Source: a virus
Length of the DNA: 28,236 nt
IMG/VR virus record: IMGVR_UViG_3300025886_002983
Location: 1-28,236 of that record
Strand: one strand, 5' to 3'
Shown here: in pieces, positions 2,657 to 28,236 of the stretch
Layout of the letters: each line of letters begins with the position of its first letter
Numbering within the stretch: the first letter of the stretch is position 1
The notes under the pieces: generated by a model
Databases searched by the model: none
What the model was told of the DNA's origin: nothing
The model's input: the letters and a program-made list of their open reading frames with translations, nothing else
Made by a program: the position numbers and the translations under genes

Positions 2657-4744
2657 TCATCTAAAAATTGTTATATATCCTGATTTTTGGAATGTATTAT
2701 TAGGATTGTAACCTGTCCCTTTAGCGGCGTAAATATATATCCCATCTGCTATATAGTGGTTTCCTTTAGAATAAGAACCAACCCATATTTCTCCTGGTAT
2801 GGTAGATTCCCATACTAATTGGCCCCATCTATTATATACTAAAATTTGCCAATCTAACCAACATGAAGGATCTGTTACTAAAGTCCATATATCATTTACA
2901 CCATCATTATTAGGAGTAAAGGTATTAGGAGCAAATACACCAGTGCAGTTATCTTCGTAAATACAACTTCCATCATCAATTGTAGCTTCAGGGTTGTAAT
3001 TTAATGCTTCGGGGTCTGTGCACCCATAAACATCATATTTACATGAACCATCATCTACATTAGCTTCTGAGTTGTAATTGGTTGCTTCAGGGTCTGTGCA
3101 TCCTTCGATAGGAAAAACACAACATTCGTCTATAGGAACACAAGTAGTGTTGGCATCAGGATTATAATTTAATGCTACAGGTATCATACATCCCACAATT
3201 ACAGGTATACAACTACCATCATCTACTGTGGCAAGGGGGTTATAATTGAATGCTGTTTCATCAGTGCATCCTAAAGTATCATACACACATGTATTAGGAC
3301 TATCAATAGTTGCTTCGGGATCGTAATTTGAAGCTTCTGGGTCCATACAACCAACACAAGATTCAAAATCGCAGCTACCATCATTTACTGTTGCTTCTGG
3401 GTTGTAATTACAGGCTTGTTCTATAGTGCAACCAGGGATTTCTTCGGGTTCACAGTTAGGTTCATTTGTTACAATTTGAACATACATGTTATCTCCAATA
3501 TCATCATCCAACCCAAAATCATTCCATGATTGCTCACTTTCACCATTTACATCAATAATTCTAACAGTTAGAACTCCCCATTCATACATGTTAGGCCATT
3601 CTAATTCATAAGTTTCTCCTGGGGGGATAGCAAGATTATCATAGCAAGTTGTATCATCACCAGCTAGAGTTCCTAATATATCTTCAGTTATACAAAATTC
3701 TGTTATAGGAACTTCACCTTCGTTTATAAAATAAAAAGTTGGGCTCCAATATGCATCTAACCCATCGCAGCCTACATCATATAAAATTGTATCTAAAGCT
3801 AAATCTACATAATCATCAACTACAGGACATAAATTAATTAATTCAGTAGTTTGGTTATCAGGTGCCTGCCATACTTGCCCACCTGTGTTGTTTATGTTAT
3901 AAAGAGTAAATACCAAATCACAAAATTCTCCCTCATTTATGTTTTCTATCATATTTTGATAAGCAAGATTATTTAAAAGGGTGCTTAAATTTAATATAAT
4001 AGTATCACTTGATTGGTAAATATTTTGATTTCCTACACTAACATCTATTTGATCACTACCCCAATTAAAATTTAATTGGAAACCAAAAACATATGGGTTA
4101 TCAAAAGGGTATTGATTTTCAAAAATAGGAGAGTTGTTATTAGGGCAGTAAGTAGAATAAGGAATTATAGTTAACTCTCCGGTTTCTAAATTAAAATCAA
4201 CTACTTCTATATTACACCCATCGTTACAGAAAATATCCCCATCAGGGTTGTCGCATCCTTGGCTTAAAGGATTATTGAAATACCCATTAGGTTGTGTAGG
4301 ATCCGTAACAGCATCCCAACAATATTCGTTTGATTGGGGTTGATTATCCCCATTTAAATCTACCCACTCTTGCCCATCTAAGTACAAATACCATGGGAAG
4401 TAGTTATCGGGATTGTCTGGTTCACCATAACAATACCAATCTTGTGCATTTTCTGGTAAAGGAATGTCAAAAACTGGGGTTCCAATATATTTACTGTTAC
4501 CAGGTAAAATTATACCAAACCCATTCAACTCAAAATTCCAAAGATCGTCATTACACAGGAGAAAATTTACACCTAAAGTACCGCCAGTGTATGATACATC
4601 ACTATCATTTTGAATTTCGAATCCAAAAGAAATACCAGGATTGTGGTCATATACAATAGAGGATCCAGGAACTATGTGAACTTCACATTGGGCCACTCCT
4701 ACTATACTTAAAAGTGTAAAGATTAAAAAGGAAAAATATTTCAT
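2657..4744 (-). CDS. Secreted protein with GCTDP repeats and T9SS type B (CHU_C) sorting domain
   Basis: 695 residues. An N-terminal signal peptide (MKYFSFLIFTLLSIVGVAQC) precedes an Asp/Asn-rich region to about 437 with no recognised enzyme motif. Residues 438-599 hold six Cys-bounded repeats of the type GCTDPEALNYNPEATIDDGS-C. Residues about 600-695 form a gliding-motility-associated type B C-terminal domain: APNTFTPNNDGVNDIW, then ILVYNRWGQLVWE, DGIYIYAAKG and a final ITIFR. In Bacteroidetes such domains direct proteins through the type IX secretion system to the surface or medium. Finding one in a phage gene is unusual. It lies between two phage units with no visible partner, downstream of the queE terminator. 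A weak promoter may sit at about 4762-4790 (CTGG, 18-19 nt, TATAAAGG). The biological role is unknown; adhesion, receptor masking or virion decoration are possible. Confidence 0.85.
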   Translation of the reverse strand: MKYFSFLIFTLLSIVGVAQCEVHIVPGSSIVYDHNPGISFGFEIQNDSDVSYTGGTLGVNFLLCNDDLWNFELNGFGIILPGNSKYIGTPVFDIPLPENAQDWYCYGEPDNPDNYFPWYLYLDGQEWVDLNGDNQPQSNEYCWDAVTDPTQPNGYFNNPLSQGCDNPDGDIFCNDGCNIEVVDFNLETGELTIIPYSTYCPNNNSPIFENQYPFDNPYVFGFQLNFNWGSDQIDVSVGNQNIYQSSDTIILNLSTLLNNLAYQNMIENINEGEFCDLVFTLYNINNTGGQVWQAPDNQTTELINLCPVVDDYVDLALDTILYDVGCDGLDAYWSPTFYFINEGEVPITEFCITEDILGTLAGDDTTCYDNLAIPPGETYELEWPNMYEWGVLTVRIIDVNGESEQSWNDFGLDDDIGDNMYVQIVTNEPNCEPEEIPGCTIEQACNYNPEATVNDGSCDFESCVGCMDPEASNYDPEATIDSPNTCVYDTLGCTDETAFNYNPLATVDDGSCIPVIVGCMIPVALNYNPDANTTCVPIDECCVFPIEGCTDPEATNYNSEANVDDGSCKYDVYGCTDPEALNYNPEATIDDGSCIYEDNCTGVFAPNTFTPNNDGVNDIWTLVTDPSCWLDWQILVYNRWGQLVWESTIPGEIWVGSYSKGNHYIADGIYIYAAKGTGYNPNNTFQKSGYITIFR
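2948..3433 (-). repeat. Six tandem GCTDPxAxNYNPxA coding repeats
   Basis: Six units of about 26-30 codons, each starting Gly-Cys-(Thr/Met) and most ending Asp-Gly-Ser-Cys, with conserved NYN(P/S)-x-A. The copies differ at many synonymous sites, so they are diverged protein repeats rather than a recent DNA duplication. The same repeat type occurs in the 893-residue gene (10288-10920). Confidence 0.85.
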
Positions 4745-4863: not shown

Positions 4864-5640
4864 TTACACCCCTCTTTCAGTATCATAGGCAATAATGTGA
4901 TCTCTACCTGTCATGTTATAACCATGTTCTGCTACCATTTCAAATACTTTAGGATACATTTCAATCAATGTTTCACGAGTATCGCCAGCAGGCATTACAT
5001 AAGTTTTATCTTTAGGGATATTCATCTTAACCCTAAAGTCTTCAATTTCAACTAAATTTTCATCAGTTCCATCCCACACTGGTTTATAGTGATAATCATC
5101 ATGGAATTGGAGGGTTTGTTCTATAGCTTCATAATTGAGCCTAAACTTCTCATGCTGAGCGACAAACCTTTCATCAACAACTTTATCACCGGGAGTAGTA
5201 ATACCCACACGAGGACGGGAATTAGAAAACTTAGGACTAAGAGATATGAGACCAATCGGATAATCAGTAGGAACAAAATGTGATCCTTCGGTTTCGATTG
5301 TAATAAGGATTCCTCTTTCGTTGGCAAAGTGTGTAAGTTCATTTACTAAAGCAGGATGCATTGTGGGAGAACCACCAGTTAACATCATTTCTTTTACATG
5401 TGAGTTCTTATCATAAATATCAATTATGTCATTAAATGTAAATGTGCCTTTTTCGGGATGGATCGAAGTATAAAAGGAGTCACACCAGCCTCCCTCACCA
5501 AACCAACACCTATGGGTACACCCCGTAGTGCGAATCGCAATAGTTGGTCTACCAAATCTACTACCTTCACTCTGGACACATCTATATACTTCTACAATGG
5601 GAAGTACTTTATTATAATCTTCTATTCGTTTATTTGGCAT
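4864..5640 (-). CDS. queE: 7-carboxy-7-deazaguanine synthase (radical SAM)
   Basis: Converts 6-carboxy-5,6,7,8-tetrahydropterin to 7-carboxy-7-deazaguanine. 258 residues. The iron-sulfur cysteines are C41, C45 and C53 in GCTHRCWFGEGGWCDS, a CX3CX7C spacing rather than the standard radical-SAM CX3CX2C; QueE proteins are known to carry insertions here. VEVYRCVQSEGSRFGRPTI near the start (QueE: F-x-S-x-Q-G-E-G) and MLTGGSPTMHP (radical SAM T-G-G-E-P position) support the call. The stop is followed by a strong terminator. The start overlaps the end of queD by 1 base. Third preQ0-specific enzyme of the cluster. Confidence 0.9.
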   Translation of the reverse strand: MPNKRIEDYNKVLPIVEVYRCVQSEGSRFGRPTIAIRTTGCTHRCWFGEGGWCDSFYTSIHPEKGTFTFNDIIDIYDKNSHVKEMMLTGGSPTMHPALVNELTHFANERGILITIETEGSHFVPTDYPIGLISLSPKFSNSRPRVGITTPGDKVVDERFVAQHEKFRLNYEAIEQTLQFHDDYHYKPVWDGTDENLVEIEDFRVKMNIPKDKTYVMPAGDTRETLIEMYPKVFEMVAEHGYNMTGRDHIIAYDTERGV

Positions 5641-6113
5641 TAGATATTAGTTTGTTCTCTAGTGAATATAGCACTATTTTTTCCGTGTTCTGAGAATTCG
5701 ACTTGTCTTACTTTAACTCGATCATTTGTTTCTTCTTTAACAAAAGCATCTATTTTTTCAAACACATATTGGGCAAATTTTTCTGCTCCAGTAGCTGGGA
5801 GGACTCGTACTTGAGCTACCCCTGCTTCATCCATCCTTTTAAATGATTCTAGGAAGGGATCATCTTCAGCTACAATAAAGGTATGATCAAATGTATAATC
5901 CATCCATGCTTTAGGATTCATACCATCAATTTGGGTTTTAGCACGTTTCATACCACCAAAATCCCAAACCCAATTCTTTTCATCAAGTTCACCCTGGAAC
6001 CAGATTTTAAAACTTACTCCATAGCCATGGAGGAATTTGCAGTGGGTATTATCTGCTTTCCATTGACGAAATACACAAGTAAATCCATCGAATATTTTTG
6101 TTGATTGATACAT
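5640..6113 (-). CDS. queD: 6-carboxytetrahydropterin synthase QueD (atypical metal site)
   Basis: Converts dihydroneopterin triphosphate to 6-carboxytetrahydropterin. 157 residues. The fold is recognisable from CKFLHGYGVSFKIWFQGEL (family: C-x3-H-G-H...), VWDFGGMKRAK (family: I-x-D-F), FDHTFIV with D76/H77, and VEFSEHGKNSA near the C-terminus. The second histidine of the C-x3-H-G-H zinc motif is tyrosine (Y31), and the family histidine near residue 15 (A-A-H) is not seen, although H24 and H29 are present. Either the metal site is rebuilt or this is a divergent phage subfamily. ATG at 6113 overlaps the queC stop by one base. Family call confident; exact reaction inferred from neighbours. Confidence 0.85.
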   Translation of the reverse strand: MYQSTKIFDGFTCVFRQWKADNTHCKFLHGYGVSFKIWFQGELDEKNWVWDFGGMKRAKTQIDGMNPKAWMDYTFDHTFIVAEDDPFLESFKRMDEAGVAQVRVLPATGAEKFAQYVFEKIDAFVKEETNDRVKVRQVEFSEHGKNSAIFTREQTNI

Positions 6114-6964
6114 TAGGCTGCGTTTAAAATTTGTTCAACATGCGTTCGTACAGCTTCCCAATTAACAACTCCTTGCTCATCTGCATAGGATACTGGGTCG
6201 GGTCTGCCCAATTTAATAAATGCTTCAACCCTTTCAACCGAAGACGCTGATTTATAATCGCTATACCAAGTATCATCAATGTTAATGGGCTTGTAGCTAG
6301 TGTTTGTATTAGCATAAACTGTGTCAAAGTCAAGTCCGAGCTCATCACAACATTTGACTCCATCTTTAAGTATATCAAACTTATCCCCATTGAGATAAGG
6401 GGTAATATAGCTAACGCGGTTAGCGTCCCAGTTACCTTCGGTGAAGGCAATATAATCTGCATCCCTGAATTCTTGTCTGCAATCAGGATAGATCGCGTGA
6501 TCACCTGCATGAATGCCCATTGCAATACGTACTTCTGTATTTTTTTCATTTGCGATTGATAATGCTACAGCTTGAATAATTGATGAAAAGATTTTATTAC
6601 GATTAGGAACAACTGTTTCCTTCATATTTTCCTGTTCGTAGTGACCTTCAGGTACTTCATCTCCACCCTCTACAAGGGCACTATTAAGCATAGGAGCTAA
6701 ACCATCAAGTTTAATTACTCCATATTTTACTTTAGGATACATTTGTTTTTCTTCTGTAGGAGAAGAACCATCTGTCATAGTACTAAAGTAAGTAGAATTA
6801 CTATTAATGTAATCTACTAGTGAATGGGCTCGTTCAAGTTCTACTCTGTGCTTTTGACCATAATCAAAAGAAAGACAAGTAACTTCATAGCCATTGGCAA
6901 GTAGATGAAGTAACACTGTGGAGCTGTCCATACCTCCACTTAGTGACAATACTGCTTGTTTCAT
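6113..6964 (-). CDS. queC: 7-cyano-7-deazaguanine (preQ0) synthase QueC, zinc cysteines absent
   Basis: ATP-dependent conversion of 7-carboxy-7-deazaguanine plus ammonia to preQ0. 283 residues, longer than most bacterial QueC. PP-loop SGGMDSS at residues 9-15, LSFDYGQKHRVEL after it, VPNRN (about residue 130) and HAGDHAIYPDCR all match QueC. The C-terminal zinc-binding segment, normally S-C-Y...C-G-x-C-x2-C, reads TNTSYKPINIDD and then YSDYKSASSVERVEAF: position and flanks are kept (S-Y-x-P and R-x-x-A-F-x-x-x-G-x-x-D-P), the cysteines are not. ATG at 6964 overlaps dpdA by four bases. A TATAAATA at 6972-6979 is not counted as a promoter because it lies in coding sequence with no room for a leader. 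Confidence 0.92.
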   Translation of the reverse strand: MKQAVLSLSGGMDSSTVLLHLLANGYEVTCLSFDYGQKHRVELERAHSLVDYINSNSTYFSTMTDGSSPTEEKQMYPKVKYGVIKLDGLAPMLNSALVEGGDEVPEGHYEQENMKETVVPNRNKIFSSIIQAVALSIANEKNTEVRIAMGIHAGDHAIYPDCRQEFRDADYIAFTEGNWDANRVSYITPYLNGDKFDILKDGVKCCDELGLDFDTVYANTNTSYKPINIDDTWYSDYKSASSVERVEAFIKLGRPDPVSYADEQGVVNWEAVRTHVEQILNAA

Positions 6965-7743
6965 GTAATGTTATTTATAAATTTAAAAAATGTTGTATTG
7001 TGTTTGATTGAGTTAAATACATCAGAGTTAAATTCTGTGTTTACAACTTCATCAATTTTAGTTTTAGGTTTTTTATCTAAGCCCCAATTTTTATAAGTAT
7101 CACCATCAAATGATGCCATAATAGGATTAGATGTATCAATAGATTCAATTTGTTTTATATCCTTATAATATAAGAACTCTTGTGGTAAAGAACAACCTAA
7201 AAGATGAATTCTATCAGAATTTCCTATAAGTCCCATATTAATCATTTTACTAATTACCAATTGACGGCCTAAAGCTTTGCCTATGTCTTTATTAGGATGT
7301 GGGAATACTTCGTTGTAATAACTAGCCCCATATGAAAATGCTATTTTGGTGTAACCTAAGTATTTATACGTTTGATAACACTTTATTACCTCATGTAACG
7401 ACTTACCTTGCACAACAGCAACTTTAGTTACAGATTCTGGTAGTTCAATAAAACTCCATTCTTTAGCATTTCGCATAGATTTAATATGGTCCTCCCAAGC
7501 GTCTGGTACTATAAATTCATTAGGTTTAATGTCTTCAATAATAGAAATCATTCTTCCCTTTGAGTAAGGTACACCTAACTCATGTAGAGAATTATCCATT
7601 ATAACATACCTGTCTTTGTTAGTATTAAAAAATTCCCTATACCCCTCATATTCATCATATAAATGAGGGAGAAGGTAATCGTAATCATTAAACTCAAGAC
7701 TAGCTTCTAAATATGCTACAGGTACTTCGTGTGATACTTTCAT
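6961..7743 (-). CDS. dpdA: DpdA-like DNA 7-deazaguanine transglycosylase (TGT family)
   Basis: Proposed to exchange guanine in DNA for preQ0 or a derivative, as shown for DpdA proteins of bacteria and phages. 260 residues, short for the tRNA-guanine transglycosylase superfamily. Supporting motifs: VIMDNSLHELG (D50-S52), FIVPDAWEDH (D81), VAVVQGKSL (V-Q-G, 111-113; TGT has G-x-V-Q-G), HLLGCSLPQE (180-189) and SIDTSNP (201-207, with D203 as candidate catalytic aspartate). The C-terminal zinc site of TGT (C-x-C-x2-C...H) is missing. It is in the same unit as queC, queD and queE with 1-4 base overlaps, the strongest argument for a preQ0-linked role. The alternative, tRNA modification, is less likely given the short divergent sequence. 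Substrate is inferred. Confidence 0.78.
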   Translation of the reverse strand: MKVSHEVPVAYLEASLEFNDYDYLLPHLYDEYEGYREFFNTNKDRYVIMDNSLHELGVPYSKGRMISIIEDIKPNEFIVPDAWEDHIKSMRNAKEWSFIELPESVTKVAVVQGKSLHEVIKCYQTYKYLGYTKIAFSYGASYYNEVFPHPNKDIGKALGRQLVISKMINMGLIGNSDRIHLLGCSLPQEFLYYKDIKQIESIDTSNPIMASFDGDTYKNWGLDKKPKTKIDEVVNTEFNSDVFNSIKHNTTFFKFINNIT

Positions 7744-8914: not shown

Positions 8915-9955
8915 TTAAATTATTCTATAATTAAAACCGACTGAAAAATCATGCCAAACACGGTTCCAGTATTTATGGTATTTTCCTTCAGAAAATAATC
9001 CTAATCTTTTATTTACCTGCCATCCTAAAATTAACCCACCTGTGTAGTCAAACCAAGTATTACCATCAACAACGTTAGTATATGAGTATTCATTTTTAGC
9101 ACTTACATGAAGAGGTAACACACTTGCCCAAGAGTGAAGCCAAAATGATTTAGTATAGTGGTAATAATCATATCCTATTACTAATGAATGATTCCATTGG
9201 TAAGGTAATAATGCTCTTTCTTGATCAACATATTCACTTAAAGCCTTAGGGGCTTCTACTAATTTAAATTCTTCATCAGTAGAGGCTACAACATTACCAT
9301 TTGGATGAGTCCATTTTCCTTGAAAATTTGTAGTATATCCTACTTCGTTAATTAAAAGAGCAAGGGCCTCAGAGGATTGTAATCCATCTAAAGGATCAAA
9401 ACCATAAGGTTCTGAGAAACGTTGAACTAAGCCTAAATTTAAAGAAAATTCTTTGGCTACGTTATATCTATAACGTTGTGAGGCTTCAAAATATTTTAAA
9501 TCAGCAAATCCATCTTGAACATACTCTACTTTTAATATCCAATGATCATGAACATATCTTAAAAAATGTTGTTGATCTACAAATTTACTTCCTTGTTGCC
9601 TTTTATAATCAAATTCAAATAAATATTCTAAACCTTCTACATTACCTACTGTAGCAGCATCTGAAACTGAACTTTCAGTACCATTGTAAAATACGTTTTT
9701 TCTATTTTCGTAATCTAAACGGGCAATTTTTCTAACACCAAATGCTAAAGTATAATCAAAAGGAGTAGATATAGTTTCTTCTGTTAAAGAAGGTTGAGTT
9801 AATGAATAAACGCTAACATCTGCCAATGAATTATTTCCTGTTACAGCAGTATAAAAAGTAGCAAATTTAAGTTGTTGTTTACCCCAGTTTTTAAGTTGTT
9901 GGGCTTGTGCTAAAAGAGGTACACAACATAATAAAGTAATTAAAAGCTTTTTCAT
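8915..9955 (-). CDS. Exported outer-membrane-like protein
   Basis: 346 residues. Signal peptide MKKLLITLLCCVPLLAQAQQ, then a sequence rich in aromatic residues and alternating strands: YLFEFDYKRQQG, HFLRYVHDHWILKVEYVQDG, ASQRYRYNVAKEFSLNLGLV, HSLVIGYDYYHYTKSFWL, FDYTGGLILGWQVNKRLGLF and a final FSVGFNYRII. This is the pattern of an outer-membrane beta-barrel of perhaps 12-16 strands. No named family recognised. The start overlaps the end of the T9SS type A gene by 4 bases, so both are made from one message and may act together at the surface. Export is well supported, the barrel is inferred, function unknown. Confidence 0.6.
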   Translation of the reverse strand: MKKLLITLLCCVPLLAQAQQLKNWGKQQLKFATFYTAVTGNNSLADVSVYSLTQPSLTEETISTPFDYTLAFGVRKIARLDYENRKNVFYNGTESSVSDAATVGNVEGLEYLFEFDYKRQQGSKFVDQQHFLRYVHDHWILKVEYVQDGFADLKYFEASQRYRYNVAKEFSLNLGLVQRFSEPYGFDPLDGLQSSEALALLINEVGYTTNFQGKWTHPNGNVVASTDEEFKLVEAPKALSEYVDQERALLPYQWNHSLVIGYDYYHYTKSFWLHSWASVLPLHVSAKNEYSYTNVVDGNTWFDYTGGLILGWQVNKRLGLFSEGKYHKYWNRVWHDFSVGFNYRII

Positions 9956-12633
9956 TGTTTGATGATTTTTTTAACAAATTGTAATTCATTATGTGTAAGA
10001 ATTAAATTATAAATTCCACTTTCAAACCCACTCATATCAATTTGTTTAACATTAGGTACTTCTGCTACAGGTTGTCCAATAGCATTATAAAGTACTGCAT
10101 TTATCTGCAAGTTACTTGCGATATTAATGATGTCATTTGTTGGGTTGGGGAATACTATGATTTCATTTTCACCATATTCAATTATATTAGTTATTGTATT
10201 TTCATCACAGTAATTATACAATTCTTGACACCCATTAGCCCATTCACTATTACAGCAACTTGGGCTAACGTCTATAACCCAAGCAAAACATTCATTTTCT
10301 AAATCTAATAAATTATATGCTTCAACTACGGGGTTAGTACATCCTGCATATACGGTTTCACAAGTACCATTATCAGTATTTGCTTCTTCATCATAATTAG
10401 CAGCTTGTGGGTCAGTACAACCATAAATAAATGGTTCACAACTAAAATTTTCAGTATTGGCTTCAGAATTATAATTAAATGCTGTTGGGTCTGTACATCC
10501 TTCCACTACATCTTCACATGAATCATTATTTACATTAGCTAATTCATTATAATTAAATGCTTCAGGATCTGTGCAACCGTAAATAGCATTTACACAATCA
10601 AAATTATTTACATTAGCTAATGGATTAAAATTAAGTGCTAATGGATCCATGCATCCTTCTACAATTAGAACACAAGGATTAGTTGAATCAGTAGCTGAAT
10701 TCCATTGTACAGTAGCATCGGGGTTATAATTAAACTGAGTATTATCCATACACCCAAACTCAGCTAATACTTGACAATCACCATTATCATAATCAGCTAC
10801 AAATCCCTGAGTATGGTACTCCAAAAATGCTGGGCTAGTACATCCCGGATTGTAGTAACAGCTATTGTCTTCAGTATTGGCTCCTGCTATGTAATTAAAA
10901 GCTGTTTCATCAAGACAACCATAAACATAGGGTTCACAAGTGTTACCACAATAAGGGTTTATTTCGTACTTGTACCAACCACTTTCATTTATAAAAGGAA
11001 TAATGTTAAAGAAAGGGACATCAATAATAACTTCACCACCAGGATTAGTTAATGTAAACCCACATTGTTGTATTGTTCCTATAGATTGGGGTGTTACAAA
11101 GAAATAAACATAAGTGGGTTGGGTAGCATCTAAATTAATACTAAATGATAATTCAGTACCATCATCAGGACCCATTTGATATTGTGGGGAATTAAATCCA
11201 AATTGCCAAATACCTAACCAACTACCAAACCAACCATCTCCAACCCCATCTGTAATAGTTAAAGTGAATTCACAAGATTCTATAATATCTTCAGTATTAG
11301 CTTCAGGATTATAATTAAATTGGGTAGAATCAGTACATCCTACTACTACTGGTGTTATGCATGATCCTGCTAAAAAAGTGGTTGCTTCAGGATTATATTC
11401 AACATAATTAGGATCAGTACAACCCGCAATAACTTCAATTAAACCACATGATGTTGGAGGAGAAAAAGTAGCTGAAGTAGTAATATATCCAAAATTACCG
11501 TTGGGGTATTCATCTAAAAGACTCCATAATAGGTCTCCATTACAATCTAAAACTTCAATATTACCATTAATATCTGAATTAGAAAAACAGGAGCCACATA
11601 ATCCATCTCCATAAGTATCTTCTATTACTAAATCATACTCACCTCCTAAAGTAACACAAACTGTATTAGATATTGGGATCCCAGCGGGTGAACCTGCATA
11701 AGTACCTAAAGGAGCGGTGGCATAAGTTTGGTCATTAGGACCATATAATAGCCAACTAGTTTCTCCTCCGGCAAAAAGATCAGGAGTTACTATTATTTCA
11801 AGTAAAGATTCATCAGGGGCACACTCTGTGTTTTGGGTTATACAAGAACCATTATCGTAATTAGCCCAAGGATTCCAATTGGTAGCACCAAAATCTGTGC
11901 ATCCAGGTATTGCCCCACATGGTAAACATGACTCCCAGCAATAATTTGGTAGTAATTGGTTTTCTTCTTCAATTACATCCAAAGTTCTATTTACAAATCC
12001 ATTACCATCAAATAAAAAACAAGAATTACCATCAACCCCTACGGGTAATTCTTGTATACTAGGATCATTATAATCAGCAAACTTCCATAAATAATTACCT
12101 TCTTGTATAGGAATAGTTATAAACCATTCATCACCTTCATCGTATTCCATAGGAATAACTTGCCAACCATTCCAACTTCCTAATACACCAGGAGTTTCTA
12201 TTTCAGGGGGTGCATTAGCTAAATTAACTCTAAAAGTTATATCTGAAGTAGGAATTTCACAGGGTTCTAAATTAAAATTATAACTGACAATGTTTGAATC
12301 AAACTCATAGTCTTCAAATATTATGCCTTCACAATTATTAGCTGAAAGAAAAAATCCTTCTCCCCACCCACAACAAATTCCATCTCCAAAAGAATCAGTA
12401 ATAGTAAAAGTATAATCAGTATTGGAATTTAAGAATATTCTTTGTTCAACTAATGTGCTAGGTGGTGTACCAGCATAACTAGGACTGACAACAACTGTAT
12501 CAGCTCCTTGTGTTATTATCCAGGCCGTTTCTGGGGGATAATTATCAAGTTGAATTGTAAGATCTAAGTATGTTGGCTGAGCCAAACATGTAAGACCAAT
12601 AAGTAATAAAATGGAGGTTAATAAATGTTTCAT
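9952..12633 (-). CDS. Large secreted protein with GCTDP repeats, CBM-like domain and T9SS type A sorting domain
   Basis: 893 residues. Signal peptide 1-19. Two or three copies of a DSFGDGIC/DTYGDGLC/DGVGDGWFG module (about 79-90, 339-347, 462-470). Residues about 132-220 resemble a glycogen/starch-binding (CBM20/48-type) domain: PGVLGSWNGWQVIPM, then WFITIPIQEGNYLWKFAD. Eleven Cys-bounded GCTDP-type repeats occur at 244-264, 404-454 and in a run at 572-782. The C-terminal ~70 residues are a T9SS type A sorting domain: IIVFPNPTNDIINI, LYNAIGQPV, SGIYNLILT and a final basic FVKKIIKQ. In Bacteroidetes this domain is cleaved after export and the cargo is anchored or released. The gene overlaps both neighbours by 1-4 bases, so it is an integrated phage gene. 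Role unknown; carbohydrate binding at the surface is plausible. Confidence 0.88.
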   Translation of the reverse strand: MKHLLTSILLLIGLTCLAQPTYLDLTIQLDNYPPETAWIITQGADTVVVSPSYAGTPPSTLVEQRIFLNSNTDYTFTITDSFGDGICCGWGEGFFLSANNCEGIIFEDYEFDSNIVSYNFNLEPCEIPTSDITFRVNLANAPPEIETPGVLGSWNGWQVIPMEYDEGDEWFITIPIQEGNYLWKFADYNDPSIQELPVGVDGNSCFLFDGNGFVNRTLDVIEEENQLLPNYCWESCLPCGAIPGCTDFGATNWNPWANYDNGSCITQNTECAPDESLLEIIVTPDLFAGGETSWLLYGPNDQTYATAPLGTYAGSPAGIPISNTVCVTLGGEYDLVIEDTYGDGLCGSCFSNSDINGNIEVLDCNGDLLWSLLDEYPNGNFGYITTSATFSPPTSCGLIEVIAGCTDPNYVEYNPEATTFLAGSCITPVVVGCTDSTQFNYNPEANTEDIIESCEFTLTITDGVGDGWFGSWLGIWQFGFNSPQYQMGPDDGTELSFSINLDATQPTYVYFFVTPQSIGTIQQCGFTLTNPGGEVIIDVPFFNIIPFINESGWYKYEINPYCGNTCEPYVYGCLDETAFNYIAGANTEDNSCYYNPGCTSPAFLEYHTQGFVADYDNGDCQVLAEFGCMDNTQFNYNPDATVQWNSATDSTNPCVLIVEGCMDPLALNFNPLANVNNFDCVNAIYGCTDPEAFNYNELANVNNDSCEDVVEGCTDPTAFNYNSEANTENFSCEPFIYGCTDPQAANYDEEANTDNGTCETVYAGCTNPVVEAYNLLDLENECFAWVIDVSPSCCNSEWANGCQELYNYCDENTITNIIEYGENEIIVFPNPTNDIINIASNLQINAVLYNAIGQPVAEVPNVKQIDMSGFESGIYNLILTHNELQFVKKIIKQ
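10288..10920 (-). repeat. Run of seven GCTDP-type coding repeats
   Basis: Codons 572-782 of the 893-residue gene. Seven diverged units begin G-C-(T/L/M), most with F-N-Y-N-x-x-A-N, and end in cysteine; four more units lie upstream in the same gene. The units match those at 2948-3433, pointing to a shared module in the two secreted proteins. Confidence 0.82.
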
Positions 12634-23040: not shown

Positions 23041-25338
23041 TTATAATATACGATCAATTCCTTGGATTACCAAATCAGGAGTAATATTTTCTATTTCATA
23101 CCAGTCTTCCATTGATTTTATTTCCTTAAAAGGGTACCAATTCCAGTTTGAAGCATCAATTCTGTGAGAATTAAAATATCCTGAGGTGGGGGAATCTACA
23201 TAAATTCGAGTACAGTTAGTTTGAAATTCACACCAGGATCTAGAAAAAGAAGATATAAGCATTGTTGGGGTATTTAATGCCCACGCTACCCATGATAACC
23301 CAGAACCTATACCAATATGATATTCGGCTCCATTAATAACCGACATAACTTCTTCTAAAGACCTATTATGGAAGTGATAATCCGCTTGAGGGGAAGTATT
23401 CATAAACCCTTGGGTACCAAAAGTTCTATGTTGATCTACTACGGCTACCTTATATCCTTTATTTTGTAAATGTTTTACTACTTGTTCCCAACCTGTTGGA
23501 TGGTTCCAATATTTTGCTTGACACGTAGATTGAACTGAAATAGTTATGTATTTTTCTTTTATAGGGGAAGAAGGAACTGCTTTAAATTTAGGGTTTACTT
23601 CTTTAAATTCTAATCCTAAAATATCAGAAGCAGTTTTTTGGAGAGGTTGATGTTGGAAATTAGAGGGATGATTTGATTTTTTATATTCCCCTTTATCATA
23701 AAACCACCCTATACTATAAGAAGCATAAAGATTATTTACTACAGTACCAGGTTCTACAAATTGAATTTTAGGGTATTGAGATTTAAACCAATCATTATGA
23801 AATGTAGAACAAATTACTTCACAATTATGTTTTTTTCTAAATTCTTCTGCGTAAGGAAACCAAGCAATAGTATCACCTATTGATTTACTATCTAAATAAA
23901 TATAAACTCTTTTATCAATTAAATCTAAAACATGTTCGTGAATTTTATTATCACTTTCCCAAATTTCAATTCTCCATTTTATAAAGGATTTATAACTAGG
24001 GGCAGTCCACATATTATTTTTAATAATATCTTCCCAAACTAATTCATTAGTATCATCATTATAAAATTTAACTTGATATTCTTGACTTAAGGGACCTTTT
24101 ATTTCACATCTAGCTCCATCTATAAAACTAATGATAATTTCGTTTTTTAAACTTGTCATAAAATTTTGTAAAGTTTTGTTTCCAATTTCTGCCACTTTAT
24201 CCCAATTAAAATCTCTATGAATTAGCTTAGCTTCTTCTACAGCTCGTTTTTTATGGTCTGTATAGTTTTTAAAAGCATCTCTCATTACACGAGCTAAGTC
24301 TTTAAAATCAGGTTCATAGTAATTACCTACTGAAGAATTAAAGTGGTTATAATCAGCATCCATAACGGGTTTTTCATCTAGTATTTTTACAGGTAATCCT
24401 TTTCCCTTTGCAAATTCCATTTGACCACTACAAGCAGAATAAATTGAAGGAGTGCCACAAGCCATAGCTTCAATTAAAGGTAAATTCCATCCTTCACTTC
24501 TAGCACAGGATACGAATACATGACCATTCTTTAGGTAAGTAACATAATCTTCTCTAGAAGGAAAGTGTTTTATTTTGATGCGTTTATCAGTAAAACCATA
24601 ATGCTTTAAACGTTTTTCAGTTGTTTCATGTCCATCACCTGAAAAAGGATTGTCTATGGAAACTATTAAATCTACAGGATCTGAAGGGTCAAATTCTTTA
24701 AGGAAGGTTTCGATTATTTCTTTAGTAGATTTTCTATAGTCCCATCTTCCAAATAATACAAATTTAAATCTTCCATCTTTATAATCTAAAGTGGTTTGGG
24801 GATCTTCAGGATAAAAAGTATTAACATCTACTCCTTCAGGTACAATTTTTACTTTATTAGGATCAGCTCCCTGTTTAATAGTACAATCTGCTTGCCATTG
24901 TGAAGGGACCCATATTTGGTCATACTCTAGTAATTTATCAAAAAATTGGGGTGGTTGCAAAGTAGACTCCCAAACATTATATGCTATTTTAGGTTTATCA
25001 TATGAATCATAAAAAAAGTAATGATCAGTTTCATTTAAAACTAAATCAATATTATGTTCAAATTCATTCTTATGTTTAGTATAAATAGGAAAGTTATCTC
25101 TAGTAGTTTTACTAGTCCATAAAGTTTGTTCTACTAATAGCTTTTTATCAGTTTTATTAAGGTAGGATTCACCGTTATGAGGTTCATCATTGGGCCAATT
25201 CCAATTTTTGCCTATTGTAAAATTACGAATTTTTATATCAATTTTTTTAGATAATTTTCTAAAAAAATCTCGAGAGTGGTGATTATAACCTGTTGTTCCT
25301 ACATAAGAACAATGAACCTTTAATTTAGGTGTAGACAT
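23041..25338 (-). CDS. Two-domain glycosyltransferase: GT4-like plus O-heptosyltransferase-like
   Basis: 765 residues. Residues 1 to about 390 are a GT-B glycosyltransferase of the GT4 type: IAYNVWESTLQPP, DQIWVPSQWQAD, VKIVPEGVDVNTFYP, FVLFGRWDYRKSTKEIIE and the nucleotide-sugar motif SEGWNLPLIEAMACGTPSI. From about 400 on it resembles bacterial autotransporter O-heptosyltransferases: ISFIDGARCEIKG, ELVWEDIIKNNMW, then YLDSKSIGDTIAWFPYAEEF, CSTFHNDWF and IGIGSGLSWVAWALNTPTML. The iron-finger cysteines known in TibC-type enzymes appear replaced in the C-terminal stretch ending WNWYP. Such fusions build a protein-linked glycan. The next unit upstream encodes a Ser/Thr-rich repeat protein, a plausible acceptor. 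Acceptor and sugars are inferred. Confidence 0.8.
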   Translation of the reverse strand: MSTPKLKVHCSYVGTTGYNHHSRDFFRKLSKKIDIKIRNFTIGKNWNWPNDEPHNGESYLNKTDKKLLVEQTLWTSKTTRDNFPIYTKHKNEFEHNIDLVLNETDHYFFYDSYDKPKIAYNVWESTLQPPQFFDKLLEYDQIWVPSQWQADCTIKQGADPNKVKIVPEGVDVNTFYPEDPQTTLDYKDGRFKFVLFGRWDYRKSTKEIIETFLKEFDPSDPVDLIVSIDNPFSGDGHETTEKRLKHYGFTDKRIKIKHFPSREDYVTYLKNGHVFVSCARSEGWNLPLIEAMACGTPSIYSACSGQMEFAKGKGLPVKILDEKPVMDADYNHFNSSVGNYYEPDFKDLARVMRDAFKNYTDHKKRAVEEAKLIHRDFNWDKVAEIGNKTLQNFMTSLKNEIIISFIDGARCEIKGPLSQEYQVKFYNDDTNELVWEDIIKNNMWTAPSYKSFIKWRIEIWESDNKIHEHVLDLIDKRVYIYLDSKSIGDTIAWFPYAEEFRKKHNCEVICSTFHNDWFKSQYPKIQFVEPGTVVNNLYASYSIGWFYDKGEYKKSNHPSNFQHQPLQKTASDILGLEFKEVNPKFKAVPSSPIKEKYITISVQSTCQAKYWNHPTGWEQVVKHLQNKGYKVAVVDQHRTFGTQGFMNTSPQADYHFHNRSLEEVMSVINGAEYHIGIGSGLSWVAWALNTPTMLISSFSRSWCEFQTNCTRIYVDSPTSGYFNSHRIDASNWNWYPFKEIKSMEDWYEIENITPDLVIQGIDRIL
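23043..23074 (-). promoter_or_regulatory. Bacteroidetes-type promoter for the DNA polymerase gene
   Basis: Minus strand: TTTGG (23074-23070), 19 nt, TATATTAT (23050-23043), preceded by CG. The -10 ends 4 nt before the polymerase ATG at 23038. It lies within the last codons of the glycosyltransferase gene, giving the polymerase its own start. Confidence 0.68.
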
Positions 25339-25343
25339 AACAA

Positions 25344-25375
25344 TTAATATAACAAATTTAATTTAAAAAACCAAA
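25344..25375 (-). promoter_or_regulatory. Bacteroidetes-type promoter for the glycosyltransferase gene
   Basis: Minus strand: TTTGG (25375-25371), 19 nt, TATATTAA (25351-25344). The -10 ends 5 nt before the ATG at 25338. It fills the gap between the structural protein (stop at 25376) and the glycosyltransferase. No terminator is visible, so readthrough from the fibre unit is likely too. Confidence 0.72.
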
Positions 25376-26065
25376 TTAACTCACTCCATCTAAAGCAGTA
25401 ATATCACTCCAACTAGTTCCATCCCACTTACCTATATTAGCAGCTGTTACTCCATTTACAGCTCCTATATTAGTAGGACCTGCTGCTGTAGTAACTCTTA
25501 ATATTATAGTGGTTCCAAAAGCTATGCCATGGTTATTTGTAATATTGCCTGTTCCACTGCTATTATTGTAATCATAATCATGGTCTATTATAGCACAAAT
25601 AAAATAATCATTATTTTCAATATCAGTTAAAGCAGTTGAGTTTAAAGCAAGACTATTATTACCACTTGTACTCCATGAAGTAAATTCTGTTGAGTAAGGA
25701 GCGCTATAATTTAAGCTATCAAAATATTCACTTACAGCAAGAGTTGATCCTCCATCCCCTCCAAAAGCACTACTACTTACTACTATGTAATCGCCTGTAC
25801 CATTAGTTACACCTGTAACCTCTATACTTGCTGCAGAAGGGGGTGTTGTAATTGTAGAAGTATCAAAATAGATAAATGTGCGGTAAAATTTATAGTTAGT
25901 AGTTACCCTATCACTTGATCTAAGAAATGAAAATGCAATGTCCTCATTACCTGTAGGGTTAGTACTAATAGCAGATCCTGTTTCTCTTTGTTTAGTAAAG
26001 TCAGGATCACCCGCACTATTATATATAAATCCTTTTTTTCCTGCGTTTACGTTTATATCTGGCAT
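25376..26065 (-). CDS. Probable virion structural / fibre-associated protein
   Basis: 229 residues, no signal peptide, rich in Ser, Thr, Asn and Gly, with beta-strand character (DRVTTNYKFYRTFIYFDTST, AASIEVTGVTNGTGDYIVV, HGIAFGTTIILRVTTAAGP). The end TNIGAVNGVTAANIGKWDGT then WSDITALDGVS reads like the repetitive ends of phage tail-fibre or receptor-binding proteins. No named family. Its ATG overlaps the methyltransferase gene by 13 bases, placing it in the fibre unit. Confidence 0.6.
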   Translation of the reverse strand: MPDINVNAGKKGFIYNSAGDPDFTKQRETGSAISTNPTGNEDIAFSFLRSSDRVTTNYKFYRTFIYFDTSTITTPPSAASIEVTGVTNGTGDYIVVSSSAFGGDGGSTLAVSEYFDSLNYSAPYSTEFTSWSTSGNNSLALNSTALTDIENNDYFICAIIDHDYDYNNSSGTGNITNNHGIAFGTTIILRVTTAAGPTNIGAVNGVTAANIGKWDGTSWSDITALDGVS

Positions 26066-26619
26066 TGTGGTAGGTAATAAGTTGTGTGGTTAAAATAAGA
26101 ATTTTGGGGTGGATTAATTGAAAATTGTTGGTAAGTTACATTAGGAATGTTGAAATAATTTTTTTCTCCATTTAAACCGTTCCACCAAGTAATTAAACCA
26201 TCTTTTTTCACTAAAGGAAATAGTGAAGAACTAAAATGTTCTAAATTATCATCTCTATAAGTGTCAAAAAATAGCCCGTCATACATAGATAAAGTATCTT
26301 TTATTTTATACCAATCTCCTTCTACAATAGTAACATTAGGTTTATCTTTAACCCATTGTTTGGCTTTTGGAAGTATCTGAGGATGGTTTTCTATTATTGT
26401 ATGTGAGTTTATATTATGCGATTGGATGTATCTTGCAGATATTCCCATACCAAACCCTACTTCTAGTATATCTCCACCATTAGAACAAACATAAGCTGCG
26501 GATGCAGACATTAGTTTGTCTTCCCAATCCATCATTACTTCTTTTTCTTCCTGCCAATCCTCGTCGTAATAATAAATTTTGTTATTTTCAAATGTTAAAA
26601 CTTTTTCTATATAACTCAT
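26053..26619 (-). CDS. SAM methyltransferase resembling GAMT/RMT2 (N-methyltransferase)
   Basis: 188 residues. Motif I is ILEVGFGMGISARYIQ (51-66), followed by HTIIENHPQILPKAKQWV, VTIVEGDWYKI and YDGLFFDTYRDDN, then LVKKDGLITWWNG. The sequence L-E-V-G-F-G-M, the I-I-E strand end and the G-x-W...D-x-x-x-x-D-T-Y pattern match guanidinoacetate / arginine N-methyltransferase-2 proteins. The substrate is unknown; in this setting it may methylate a fibre or other phage protein. It is embedded between two structural genes with 1- and 13-base overlaps. Confidence 0.72.
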   Translation of the reverse strand: MSYIEKVLTFENNKIYYYDEDWQEEKEVMMDWEDKLMSASAAYVCSNGGDILEVGFGMGISARYIQSHNINSHTIIENHPQILPKAKQWVKDKPNVTIVEGDWYKIKDTLSMYDGLFFDTYRDDNLEHFSSSLFPLVKKDGLITWWNGLNGEKNYFNIPNVTYQQFSINPPQNSYFNHTTYYLPQCQI

Positions 26620-28236
26620 TAAGCTAATTCTATATAATCATTTGATGGGTTAAAATACACTGTACTATTTCCTACTATCCAACCTACTAATCTAACAAAA
26701 TCACCTGATGTTGTTGGGAGTGTAGTAGTTAAGGTTCCTCCATCAGCTATGTATACTTTTTGGCCTACAGTTCCTGTGGTGCCTGTTCTAATAATTCCAT
26801 TAAGTAACATACCATCTGCCGATGCGGTTGATGTAGCAACTGCTATAAGACCAGAAACTGCTGCTTCAGAACCTGAAGAAGCTAATGTCCAAGTATCTGC
26901 TGCACTAAGGTAGTATACTTTACCTGTAGTAAGTCCACTAAGTCCTGTTGAATAGTATATTTGACTACCAAATCCAAAATCTCCTGGAGCACCAAATGCC
27001 CCCCCTGAGTTTTCATCACTTACATTAATTTCGTCTATATTGGCTCTACCTGCAACTTCTAGAATATCAGATAATCCATTATAAGTAAAATTAGCTTCAA
27101 CTTGTAAATTATTAGTAGCGTCTACGTAAGTTAAAACACCATTAGAAGTTGTACCTGTAATACTTCCTACAAATGAAGTACCTGAAGAACCGCTAGTACC
27201 TGAAGTGCCACTAGAACCCGAGGTGCCGTTGGTGCCGTTTGTACCTGAAGTGCCTGAAGAACCTGAGGTGCCTGAGGTGCCACTAGAACCTGAAGTGCCT
27301 CCTCCCCCAGCATCTCCATAACCATCAATATTAACACATATAACATCGTTATTGTTAAAGGGATCTGTAGAAGTTGTAGTTAAAACTGCTAAATTTGTAT
27401 ATTCGGCAACTGATGCAGCAAATGATACTGCATCGTAACTAAATATAGTAAATATTGTAGGATCAGATTTAAGGCTAAATGATATACTGCCACTATTAGT
27501 ATTACCCAAATATTGGGTATTATCATTAGAATCTGCATCAGTTTTATGAATCTTAATGGTATCAATATCAGCAGGATTAGGATCATTCACTCCTCCATTT
27601 AACCATATTACTTCACTTGTAGTAGGAATAGTATCTGTTGATTGATCAATTCTATATCTTAGACAAATAGATGAAACACCCGAAGTACCGCTTGTACCAG
27701 ATGTACCTGAGGTGCCTGATGATCCTGAAGTGCCTGAGGTACCTGATGAGCCAGAGGTACCTGATGAACCTGAAGTACCTGATGAACCAGAGGTACCTGA
27801 TGAACCTGAGGTACCTGATGAGCCTGATGAACCTGATGTTCCTGAAGAACCACTTGTACCTGATGAACCACTTGAACCTGAAGTGCCTGTAGCACCATCT
27901 ACACCTGAGGTGCCACTTGAACCTGAAGTACCTGAAGATCCTGATGTACCTGAAGAGCCATCTATACCAGAAGTGCCAGAGCTACCAGATGTACCTGATG
28001 AACCACTAATGCCAGAACTACCTGAAGTACCTGAAGTACCACTTGAACCTGATGTGCCCGTAGCACCATCTATACCAGAAGTACCTGCTGAACCACTAGA
28101 ACCACTTGTACCTGAAGAACCATCTATGCCTGAAGTACCAGATGAACCTGAAGTACCTGAACTACCCGAAGTGCCAGAGCTACCTGATGTACCTGAAGAG
28201 CCATCTACACCTGAAGTACCTGATGAACCTGAAGTA
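26619..28236 (-). CDS. Gly-Ser-Thr repeat fibre-like protein, 5' end outside window
   Basis: The frame is open from the right edge to the stop at 26619 (about 538 codons seen). A GTG at 27590 can serve as a start for a shorter product, but the frame continues upstream through ICLRYRIDQSTDTIPTTSEV and a long Gly-x-x repeat, so that GTG is internal. Order: about 185 residues of GSSGTSG-type repeat with GVDG, GIDG and GATG variants, a folded segment, a second repeat (98-139 counted from the GTG), then a Gly/Thr-rich region (LSGLTTGKVYYLSAADTWTL, GLIAVATSTASADGMLL, VGQKVYIADGG) ending FNPSNDYIELA. This is a typical phage tail-fibre or appendage layout. Glycine at every third position recalls collagen-like phage proteins, but proline is absent from the repeats. 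Confidence 0.8.
   Translation of the reverse strand, partial: TSGSSGTSGVDGSSGTSGSSGTSGSSGTSGSSGTSGIDGSSGTSGSSGSAGTSGIDGATGTSGSSGTSGTSGSSGISGSSGTSGSSGTSGIDGSSGTSGSSGTSGSSGTSGVDGATGTSGSSGSSGTSGSSGTSGSSGSSGTSGSSGTSGSSGTSGSSGTSGSSGTSGTSGSSGTSGTSGTSGTSGVSSICLRYRIDQSTDTIPTTSEVIWLNGGVNDPNPADIDTIKIHKTDADSNDNTQYLGNTNSGSISFSLKSDPTIFTIFSYDAVSFAASVAEYTNLAVLTTTSTDPFNNNDVICVNIDGYGDAGGGGTSGSSGTSGTSGSSGTSGTNGTNGTSGSSGTSGTSGSSGTSFVGSITGTTSNGVLTYVDATNNLQVEANFTYNGLSDILEVAGRANIDEINVSDENSGGAFGAPGDFGFGSQIYYSTGLSGLTTGKVYYLSAADTWTLASSGSEAAVSGLIAVATSTASADGMLLNGIIRTGTTGTVGQKVYIADGGTLTTTLPTTSGDFVRLVGWIVGNSTVYFNPSNDYIELA
27174..27299 (-). repeat. Short Gly-Thr-Ser/Gly-Ser-Ser coding repeat
   Basis: 14 consecutive Gly-x-x triplets (9 bp period) with Thr-Ser, Ser-Ser and Thr-Asn in the x positions. 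Third codon positions vary between copies, so selection is on the protein. Confidence 0.85.
27678..28236 (-). repeat. Long Gly-x-x coding repeat running off the window
   Basis: About 62 Gly-x-x triplets with a 9-bp period, mostly GTS and GSS, broken by GVD, GID, GAT and GIS units. Without proline, stability would need glycosylated Thr/Ser or a polyglycine-II type packing. The true length is unknown because the gene continues past 28236. Confidence 0.85.

What the first reader, a model, noticed from the sequence alone, without database searches (positions are those of the whole stretch)
23041..28236. Protein glycosyltransferase beside a Ser/Thr-rich repeat fibre: possible self-glycosylated phage fibre
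The C-terminal half resembles autotransporter O-heptosyltransferases, which glycosylate serines in repeats. The adjacent fibre gene has some 75 Gly-(Thr/Ser)-Ser triplets and no proline. Glycosylated Thr is known to stabilise proline-poor collagen in a vent worm. A phage that glycosylates its own collagen-like fibre would explain both genes.
Basis: inference. Interest (0 to 1): 0.72.

Follow-up and report, generated by a model that had tools for sequence, protein, structure and literature searches.

The report
Phage enzyme likely sugar-coats own fibre
This virus of Bacteroidota carries an enzyme related to those that attach sugars to bacterial surface adhesins, beside a collagen-like fibre made almost only of glycine, serine and threonine; the same pairing recurs across many phages and in some bacterial chromosomes, which suggests that the enzyme sugar-coats the fibre, although no sugar has yet been measured on it.

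Summary
ORF 23041-25338(-) is a 765-aa fusion: an N-terminal GT4 glycosyltransferase and a C-terminal half that passes TIGR04414 (Aah/TibC O-heptosyltransferase; 263.6 bits, cut-off 200) and folds like TibC. The fibre, 26619-28235(-), is cut off by the window edge. It has 78 G-X-Y triplets, 64 of them G-(T/S)-S, with no proline in the repeats. Two genes lie between, so the pair is near rather than adjacent.

A TibC-type gene occurs in 33/100 viral contigs with G(T/S)S repeats, 0/100 random contigs and 0/50 GPX-pattern contigs. In phages sharing the window's UvsX lineage the two traits go together (Fisher p=6e-5). They lie close within genomes. Independently, in nine bacterial genome loci a TibC-type gene sits 20-1,500 bp from a small secreted GTS/GSS-repeat protein. 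Some phages carry HldE-like (ADP-heptose) genes overlapping the TibC-type gene.

Caveats: no glycan has been observed. The window enzyme lacks TibC's iron finger and Arg286, both essential in TibC, so donor and assembly may differ. I read this as a sister clade of the autotransporter heptosyltransferases, directed at G-(S/T)-S repeat proteins: a new variant of a known kind.

The parts
26619..28235 (-). Collagen-like virion fibre, C-terminal 538 aa (5' end beyond the window): 62 + 16 G-X-Y triplets (64 G(T/S)S, no Pro in repeats), a 118-aa middle domain and a 184-aa C-terminal domain
   Evidence: PF01391 E 1.6e-28; tail fibre PHROGs
27672..28229 (-). main repeat block, 62 G-X-Y triplets (28 GTS, 24 GSS), the presumed glycan acceptor
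   Evidence: X position mostly T/S, Y position mostly S
27174..27317 (-). second repeat block, 16 G-X-Y triplets (8 GTS, 4 GSS)
26622..27173 (-). C-terminal fibre domain; related domains end other virion proteins; weak structural resemblance to phage capsid decoration / head-fibre trimers
   Evidence: best E 0.014, low-confidence model
26053..26619 (-). 188-aa SAM methyltransferase, guanidinoacetate N-methyltransferase-like; follows the fibre gene directly in L520 and L235 and lies near it in other relatives
   Evidence: PDB 1p1b E 2e-15
25376..26065 (-). 229-aa Ser/Thr-rich protein, no family match; probably a virion protein
   Evidence: no match; relatives in L004, L235, L050 near their fibre genes
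23041..25338 (-). 765-aa two-domain glycosyltransferase, GT4 fused to a TibC-type domain
24154..25338 (-). N-terminal GT4 domain (aa 1-395), phrog_2170-like; possibly extends or supplies a second sugar (inference)
23044..24153 (-). C-terminal TibC-type domain (aa 396-765): D110, T226, K230, W305 equivalents kept; R286 replaced by Val; all four iron-finger Cys lost

Best explanation
The phage encodes a dedicated cytoplasmic protein O-glycosyltransferase whose TibC-type half adds a sugar to serine (and perhaps threonine) hydroxyls in the fibre's G-(T/S)-S repeats before virion assembly. The GT4 half may add a second sugar or extend the glycan. The result would be a hyperglycosylated collagen-like fibre that is stable or soluble without proline, protected, or adapted to binding. 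Shown: the enzyme family and fold, conserved catalytic residues, the repeat, and recurrent linkage of this enzyme clade with G(S/T)S-repeat proteins in phages and bacteria. Inferred: activity, acceptor residues, donor, timing and benefit. In some relatives HldE-like genes point to ADP-heptose as donor; for the window enzyme the donor is open.
For: TibC family and fold. TibC's Asp110 is its proposed catalytic base and Lys230 and Trp305 are sugar-site residues whose alanine mutants lose activity; all are kept here and in nearly all phage relatives. Enzyme in 33/100 G(T/S)S contigs against 0/100 random (p=1e-11) and 0/50 GPX-pattern contigs; for contigs of 80 kb or more 15/19 against 0/9. Conversely the strict repeat pattern is in 28/50 enzyme-bearing records against 2/80 random. 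Within one UvsX lineage: both 8, enzyme only 3 (all with the enzyme within about 4 kb of a contig end), repeat only 1, neither 23; p=5.7e-5. Nine of 12 scored large records have the two within 10 kb, 2.5 expected. Nine bacterial genome loci have a small secreted or lipoprotein gene of GTS/GSS repeats 20-1,500 bp from the TibC-type gene. The tree sets this clade apart from TibC and the AIDA-partnered type; of 73 informative 80%-identity clusters 52 have Ser/Thr collagen nearby. HldE-like kinase and adenylyltransferase genes overlap or abut the TibC-type gene in about a dozen phages; in L251 and L252 the GSS fibre gene follows as well.
Against: No glycan or activity has been measured. The window enzyme lacks the iron finger and Arg286, each essential in TibC; the Cys loss is shared by the window's whole clade. 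About 29% of informative clusters have no Ser/Thr collagen nearby, and a subclade around L233 with HldE-like neighbours mostly lacks it nearby. 67 of 100 repeat contigs show no TibC-type gene, although most are short fragments. No HldE-like gene was found in the near relatives' larger records (G278-G280, G030).
Confidence: 0.72

Rival explanations
1. The enzyme glycosylates a different virion protein (for example a beta-helical spike, closer to TibC's known substrates), and the collagen-like fibre is only a neighbour in a shared variable fibre module.
For: TibC's known substrates are autotransporter beta-helices. Large virion proteins lie between fibre and enzyme in L012 and L008. Some enzyme loci lack Ser/Thr collagen nearby.
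Against: The autotransporter target-repeat model TIGR04415 did not match the window fibre, the 229-aa protein or the intervening virion proteins tested in L012 and L008, while it did match an AIDA-like neighbour of a bacterial TibC-type gene. In bacteria without any phage fibre the neighbour is again a small GTS/GSS protein. Contigs with the GPX collagen pattern lack the enzyme (0/50).
Confidence: 0.14
2. The enzyme modifies a host surface glycan or host protein (superinfection exclusion or receptor change), unrelated to the fibre.
For: Phage glycosyltransferases are known to alter host serotype (PMC12619734); the N-terminal half is a generic GT4 domain.
Against: The C-terminal half belongs to a protein O-glycosyltransferase family, not to membrane-bound O-antigen enzymes. 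It does not explain the linkage with G(T/S)S repeats or the bacterial pairs.
Confidence: 0.06
3. The window enzyme is a degenerate or repurposed family member: without iron finger and Arg286 it is inactive as a protein glycosyltransferase, or acts on a small molecule.
For: Mutating any one of the four Cys, or Arg286, destroys or strongly reduces TibC activity; all are absent here.
Against: The frame is intact and conserved over relatives of 67-88% identity; Asp110, Lys230 and Trp305 equivalents stay invariant in that clade while the four Cys are replaced together. Arg286 is also lost in most phage members that keep the iron finger. The model still folds as TibC.
Confidence: 0.08

Closest known systems
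Bacterial autotransporter heptosyltransferases (BAHT; TibC, Aah; TIGR04414; PDB 4RAP/4RB4; Yao et al. 2014, PMC4358343)
   Same: Same fold; above the curated TIGR04414 cut-off; catalytic base and key sugar-site residues kept; gene located near a repeat-rich, Ser-rich surface protein.
   Different: Encoded by phages, fused to a GT4 domain, linked with G(T/S)S collagen-like repeats and not SLS autotransporter repeats; sister clade in the tree; window clade lacks the iron finger and Arg286.
Clostridioides difficile SgtA / BclA3 (PMC7157674)
   Same: Glycosyltransferase gene immediately upstream of a collagen-like surface protein gene; O-glycosylation of hydroxyl residues in the collagen repeats shown in vitro, serine accepted as well as threonine.
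   Different: Spore protein; unrelated transferase using UDP-GlcNAc; GPT repeats rich in proline.
Mimivirus L230 and viral collagens (PMC9614988)
   Same: A virus encoding its own collagen-like proteins and a collagen-glycosylating enzyme.
   Different: Lysyl hydroxylase/glucosyltransferase acting on hydroxylysine; eukaryotic giant virus; different enzyme family.
Virion glycosylation of mycobacteriophages (Freeman et al. 2023, as cited in PMC12619734)
   Same: A tailed phage whose virion proteins carry glycans.
   Different: Capsid and tail-tube C-termini are modified; the enzymes were not compared here.

Membership tests
BAHT / TIGR04414 (TibC, Aah) | Score above the curated family cut-off | tested here: met
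   263.6 bits, cut-off 200, aa 398-763
BAHT / TIGR04414 (TibC, Aah) | TibC fold: N-terminal beta-barrel plus GT-B catalytic domain | tested here: met
   Model pLDDT 84; Foldseek to 4rap TM 0.82 of target, E 8e-29
BAHT / TIGR04414 (TibC, Aah) | Catalytic base Asp110 and residues Thr226, Lys230, Trp305 | tested here: met
   All kept in the window and in nearly all phage relatives
BAHT / TIGR04414 (TibC, Aah) | Arg286, contact to the adenine of ADP-heptose | tested here: not met
   Val in the window; Arg only in some subclades
BAHT / TIGR04414 (TibC, Aah) | Iron finger of four Cys | tested here: not met
   Absent in the window clade, present in most relatives
BAHT / TIGR04414 (TibC, Aah) | Autotransporter SLS-repeat substrate (TIGR04415) encoded nearby | tested here: not met
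   Fibre and 229-aa protein do not match; positive control L542 does
BAHT / TIGR04414 (TibC, Aah) | ADP-heptose as donor | not testable with these tools
   HldE-like genes beside the enzyme in some relatives only, below curated cut-offs
BAHT / TIGR04414 (TibC, Aah) | Dodecameric ring | not testable with these tools
   Assembly not predicted
Collagen-like phage fibre (PF01391) | Continuous G-X-Y repeats above the Pfam cut-off | tested here: met
   98.7 bits, cut-off 27.2; 62 + 16 triplets
Collagen-like phage fibre (PF01391) | Forms a trimeric triple helix | not testable with these tools
   C-terminal domain only weakly resembles phage decoration and head-fibre proteins

The most novel reading that the evidence does not exclude
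A widespread clade of TibC-like enzymes, in phages and in bacteria, is dedicated to O-glycosylating proline-free G-(S/T)-S collagen-like repeats. In some phages the cassette carries its own ADP-heptose genes, so those viruses heptosylate their own fibres, and the sugar takes over the stabilising role that proline or hydroxyproline has in other collagens.
Probability: 0.35. Interest if true: 0.88.

Novelty: new variant of a known kind. Interest (0 to 1): 0.74.

Why it matters
G(T/S)S-repeat fibres are easy to find in metagenomic virus contigs, yet how such proline-free collagens are stabilised or used is not known. A dedicated enzyme clade linked with them in phages and in bacterial chromosomes makes the question directly testable. 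It would add post-translational glycosylation to the biology of phage host-recognition fibres, extend the autotransporter heptosyltransferase family to a second class of substrate, and give an enzyme for glycosylating collagen-like biomaterials.

Tried and rejected
Chance or low-complexity artefact: rejected by shuffles, variable synonymous codons and conservation. The plus-strand frame 27712-28236 (PDEPEVP...) is the antisense of the repeat, not a gene. A phage-lineage effect alone: weakened by the UvsX-matched test. A record-length effect: size-stratified tests keep the difference. Collagen fibres in general: 0/50 in contigs with the GPX pattern; that pattern is its own reverse complement, so some of those contigs are chance matches, and the sample probably differs in base composition and ecology, so this is the weakest control. 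Mel-JY01's CTP_transf_like protein as a heptose enzyme: not supported, and no TIGR02199 match anywhere in that record. Structure of the fibre's C-terminal domain: low confidence (pLDDT 66), not used as evidence. Papers on phage-encoded TibC-like enzymes or on glycosylated GTS-repeat proteins: none found in the held library; subscription journals and preprints are mostly not held. HldE-like matches lie below the curated cut-offs (about 100 of 181.5 bits and 120 of 345 bits), so 'ADP-heptose synthesis' is the best-matching name, not a firm assignment. The tree is a quick one without bootstrap.

Full report
The window. It is a 28,236-base IMG/VR virus record. The genes identified all run on the minus strand: single-strand DNA-binding protein, UvsX-like recombinase, helicase, exonuclease, ribonucleotide reductase, ThyX and a DNA-polymerase-like gene. 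Two proteins end in type IX secretion sorting domains, a system that, to my knowledge, is confined to Bacteroidota; I infer a Bacteroidota host.

The enzyme. The frame 23041-25338(-) encodes 765 aa. The first half is a GT4 glycosyltransferase (PF00534 E 1.2e-11; phrog_2170 E 2.7e-29). The second half is TibC-like by the curated family model, by sequence against solved structures and by predicted fold. In TibC, Asp110 (the proposed base), Lys230 and Trp305 are needed for activity, Thr226 contacts the donor, Arg286 contacts the adenine, and four Cys bind iron and hold the dodecamer together. The window enzyme keeps the first four but has Val for Arg286 and none of the four Cys. The Cys loss marks one clade (window, L002/L012, L003, L004, L007, L010, L011, L013, L057, L059, L203, L205, L518); nearly all other relatives keep the Cys.

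The fibre. The minus-strand frame 26619-28235 is open at the window edge. It matches the Collagen model (E 1.6e-28) and phage tail-fibre families. It has 78 G-X-Y triplets; X is mostly T (38) or S (29), Y is mostly S (66 of 78), and the repeats hold no P, K or R. Over all enzyme-linked repeat proteins X is 45% T and 35% S, and Y is 73% S. Between fibre and enzyme lie a guanidinoacetate-methyltransferase-like gene and a 229-aa protein.

Co-occurrence. A TibC-type profile (alignment A1) was searched in whole viral records. Repeat-first sample: 17/50 and 16/50. Random-word sample: 0/50 and 0/50. GPX-pattern sample: 0/50. The difference from random holds in every size class; for records of at least 80 kb it is 15/19 against 0/9. 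Reverse direction: the strict repeat pattern is in 28/50 enzyme-bearing records and in 2/80 random records, those two with identical hits. To control for phage lineage I took records by the window's UvsX, blind to both traits: both 8, enzyme only 3 (the enzyme within about 4 kb of a contig end), repeat only 1, neither 23; Fisher p=5.7e-5. Restricted to records of at least 37 kb, p=0.005, or 0.01 after removing a near-duplicate. In 12 large records with both, 9 have them within 10 kb against 2.5 expected; because the listing was cut, these 12 are records whose repeat positions were shown.

Bacterial chromosomes. A scan of GTDB species genomes gave 37 loci. In nine of them (L519, L526, L529, L530, L532, L535, L537, L541, L549) a small secreted protein or lipoprotein made of GTS/GSS repeats lies 20-1,500 bp from the TibC-type gene. 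The same ORF test found none in 2.16 Mb of control phage loci; no cellular control DNA was tested, but within these loci of up to 21 kb the repeats occur only beside the enzyme. Several other loci in that scan (for example L518, L520, L522, L524, L525) look like phage contigs binned into draft genomes. In a Selenomonadales locus (L542) the neighbour is an AIDA-like autotransporter with the known target repeat TIGR04415. The tree separates TibC and that type from the 113-row clade that holds the phage and gammaproteobacterial enzymes; among 73 informative clusters 52 have Ser/Thr collagen nearby, 7 proline collagen and 14 neither. The window itself enters this tree through the 85%-identical representative L002.

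Donor. In about a dozen phages a gene resembling heptose-1-phosphate adenylyltransferase overlaps or follows the TibC-type gene, followed by a heptose-7-phosphate-kinase-like gene. Heptose enzymes are the best-matching NCBIfam families, but scores are below the curated cut-offs, the kinase is short, and the adenylyltransferase's best solved relatives are cytidylyltransferases. In L251 and L252 the order is TibC fusion, cupin, adenylyltransferase, kinase, then a GSS fibre gene on the other strand. Control loci: 0 of 239 with the kinase, 1 with the adenylyltransferase. The near relatives of the window show no such gene (G278-G280, G030), so its donor could come from the host or be another sugar.

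Reading. The most economical account is a dedicated enzyme that glycosylates its partner repeat protein in the cytoplasm. Steps shown: family, fold, conserved catalytic residues, repeat, linkage. Steps inferred: activity, acceptor, donor, function. Known parallels are TibC-TibA (PMC4358343), SgtA-BclA3 (PMC7157674) and mimivirus L230 with viral collagens (PMC9614988). None combines a TibC-type enzyme with proline-free G(S/T)S repeats, and I found no paper on that pairing in the held library. Because defining features of TibC-type enzymes (iron finger, Arg286, autotransporter substrate) were tested and not met, I do not file the window enzyme as a BAHT member; it works, probably, like one.

Noticed in passing
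window 2657-4744 (-) and 9952-12633 (-): Two large phage proteins end in type IX secretion sorting domains (type B, TIGR04131; type A, TIGR04183). A phage may export its own proteins through the host's T9SS; it also points to a Bacteroidota host.
   Followed up: partly
window 4864-7743 (-): Radical SAM, PTPS/QueD-like and QueC genes, followed by a 260-aa protein with a weak DpdA match (below cut-off): possible 7-deazaguanine DNA modification.
   Followed up: no
window 26053-26619 (-): Guanidinoacetate-methyltransferase-like gene; relatives lie directly after or near fibre genes in several phages (L520, L235, L054, L029); substrate unknown.
   Followed up: partly
window 26622-27173 (-): The fibre's C-terminal domain recurs at the end of other virion proteins (for example L008 9633-9938) and weakly resembles phage capsid decoration or head-fibre proteins; the fibre might sit on the head and not the tail.
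   Followed up: partly
L529, L530, L532, L535, L537, L541, L549, L519, L526: Small bacterial lipoproteins or secreted proteins that consist largely of GTS/GSS repeats beside a TibC-type gene; function unknown.
   Followed up: partly
L251, L252, L260, L214, L233/L234, L256, L258, L263, L272, L273, L275, L276, L278: Phage genes resembling the two halves of HldE (ADP-heptose synthesis), as separate short genes, next to TibC-type genes.
   Followed up: partly
L233, L244, L256, L264, L272, L273, L275 (TibC-type subclade): A subclade of stand-alone TibC-type enzymes, several with HldE-like neighbours, mostly without Ser/Thr collagen within about 8-10 kb; substrate unclear.
   Followed up: no
L082 4750-8430 (PP395634): In the cultured Microcystis phage Mel-JY01 the 1,226-aa GT4-TibC fusion is annotated 'methyltransferase FkbM'; TIGR04414 scores 317 bits.
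   Followed up: partly
window 27712-28236 (+): Open frame of PDEPEVP repeats; it is the antisense of the GTS/GSS repeat and not a gene.
   Followed up: yes
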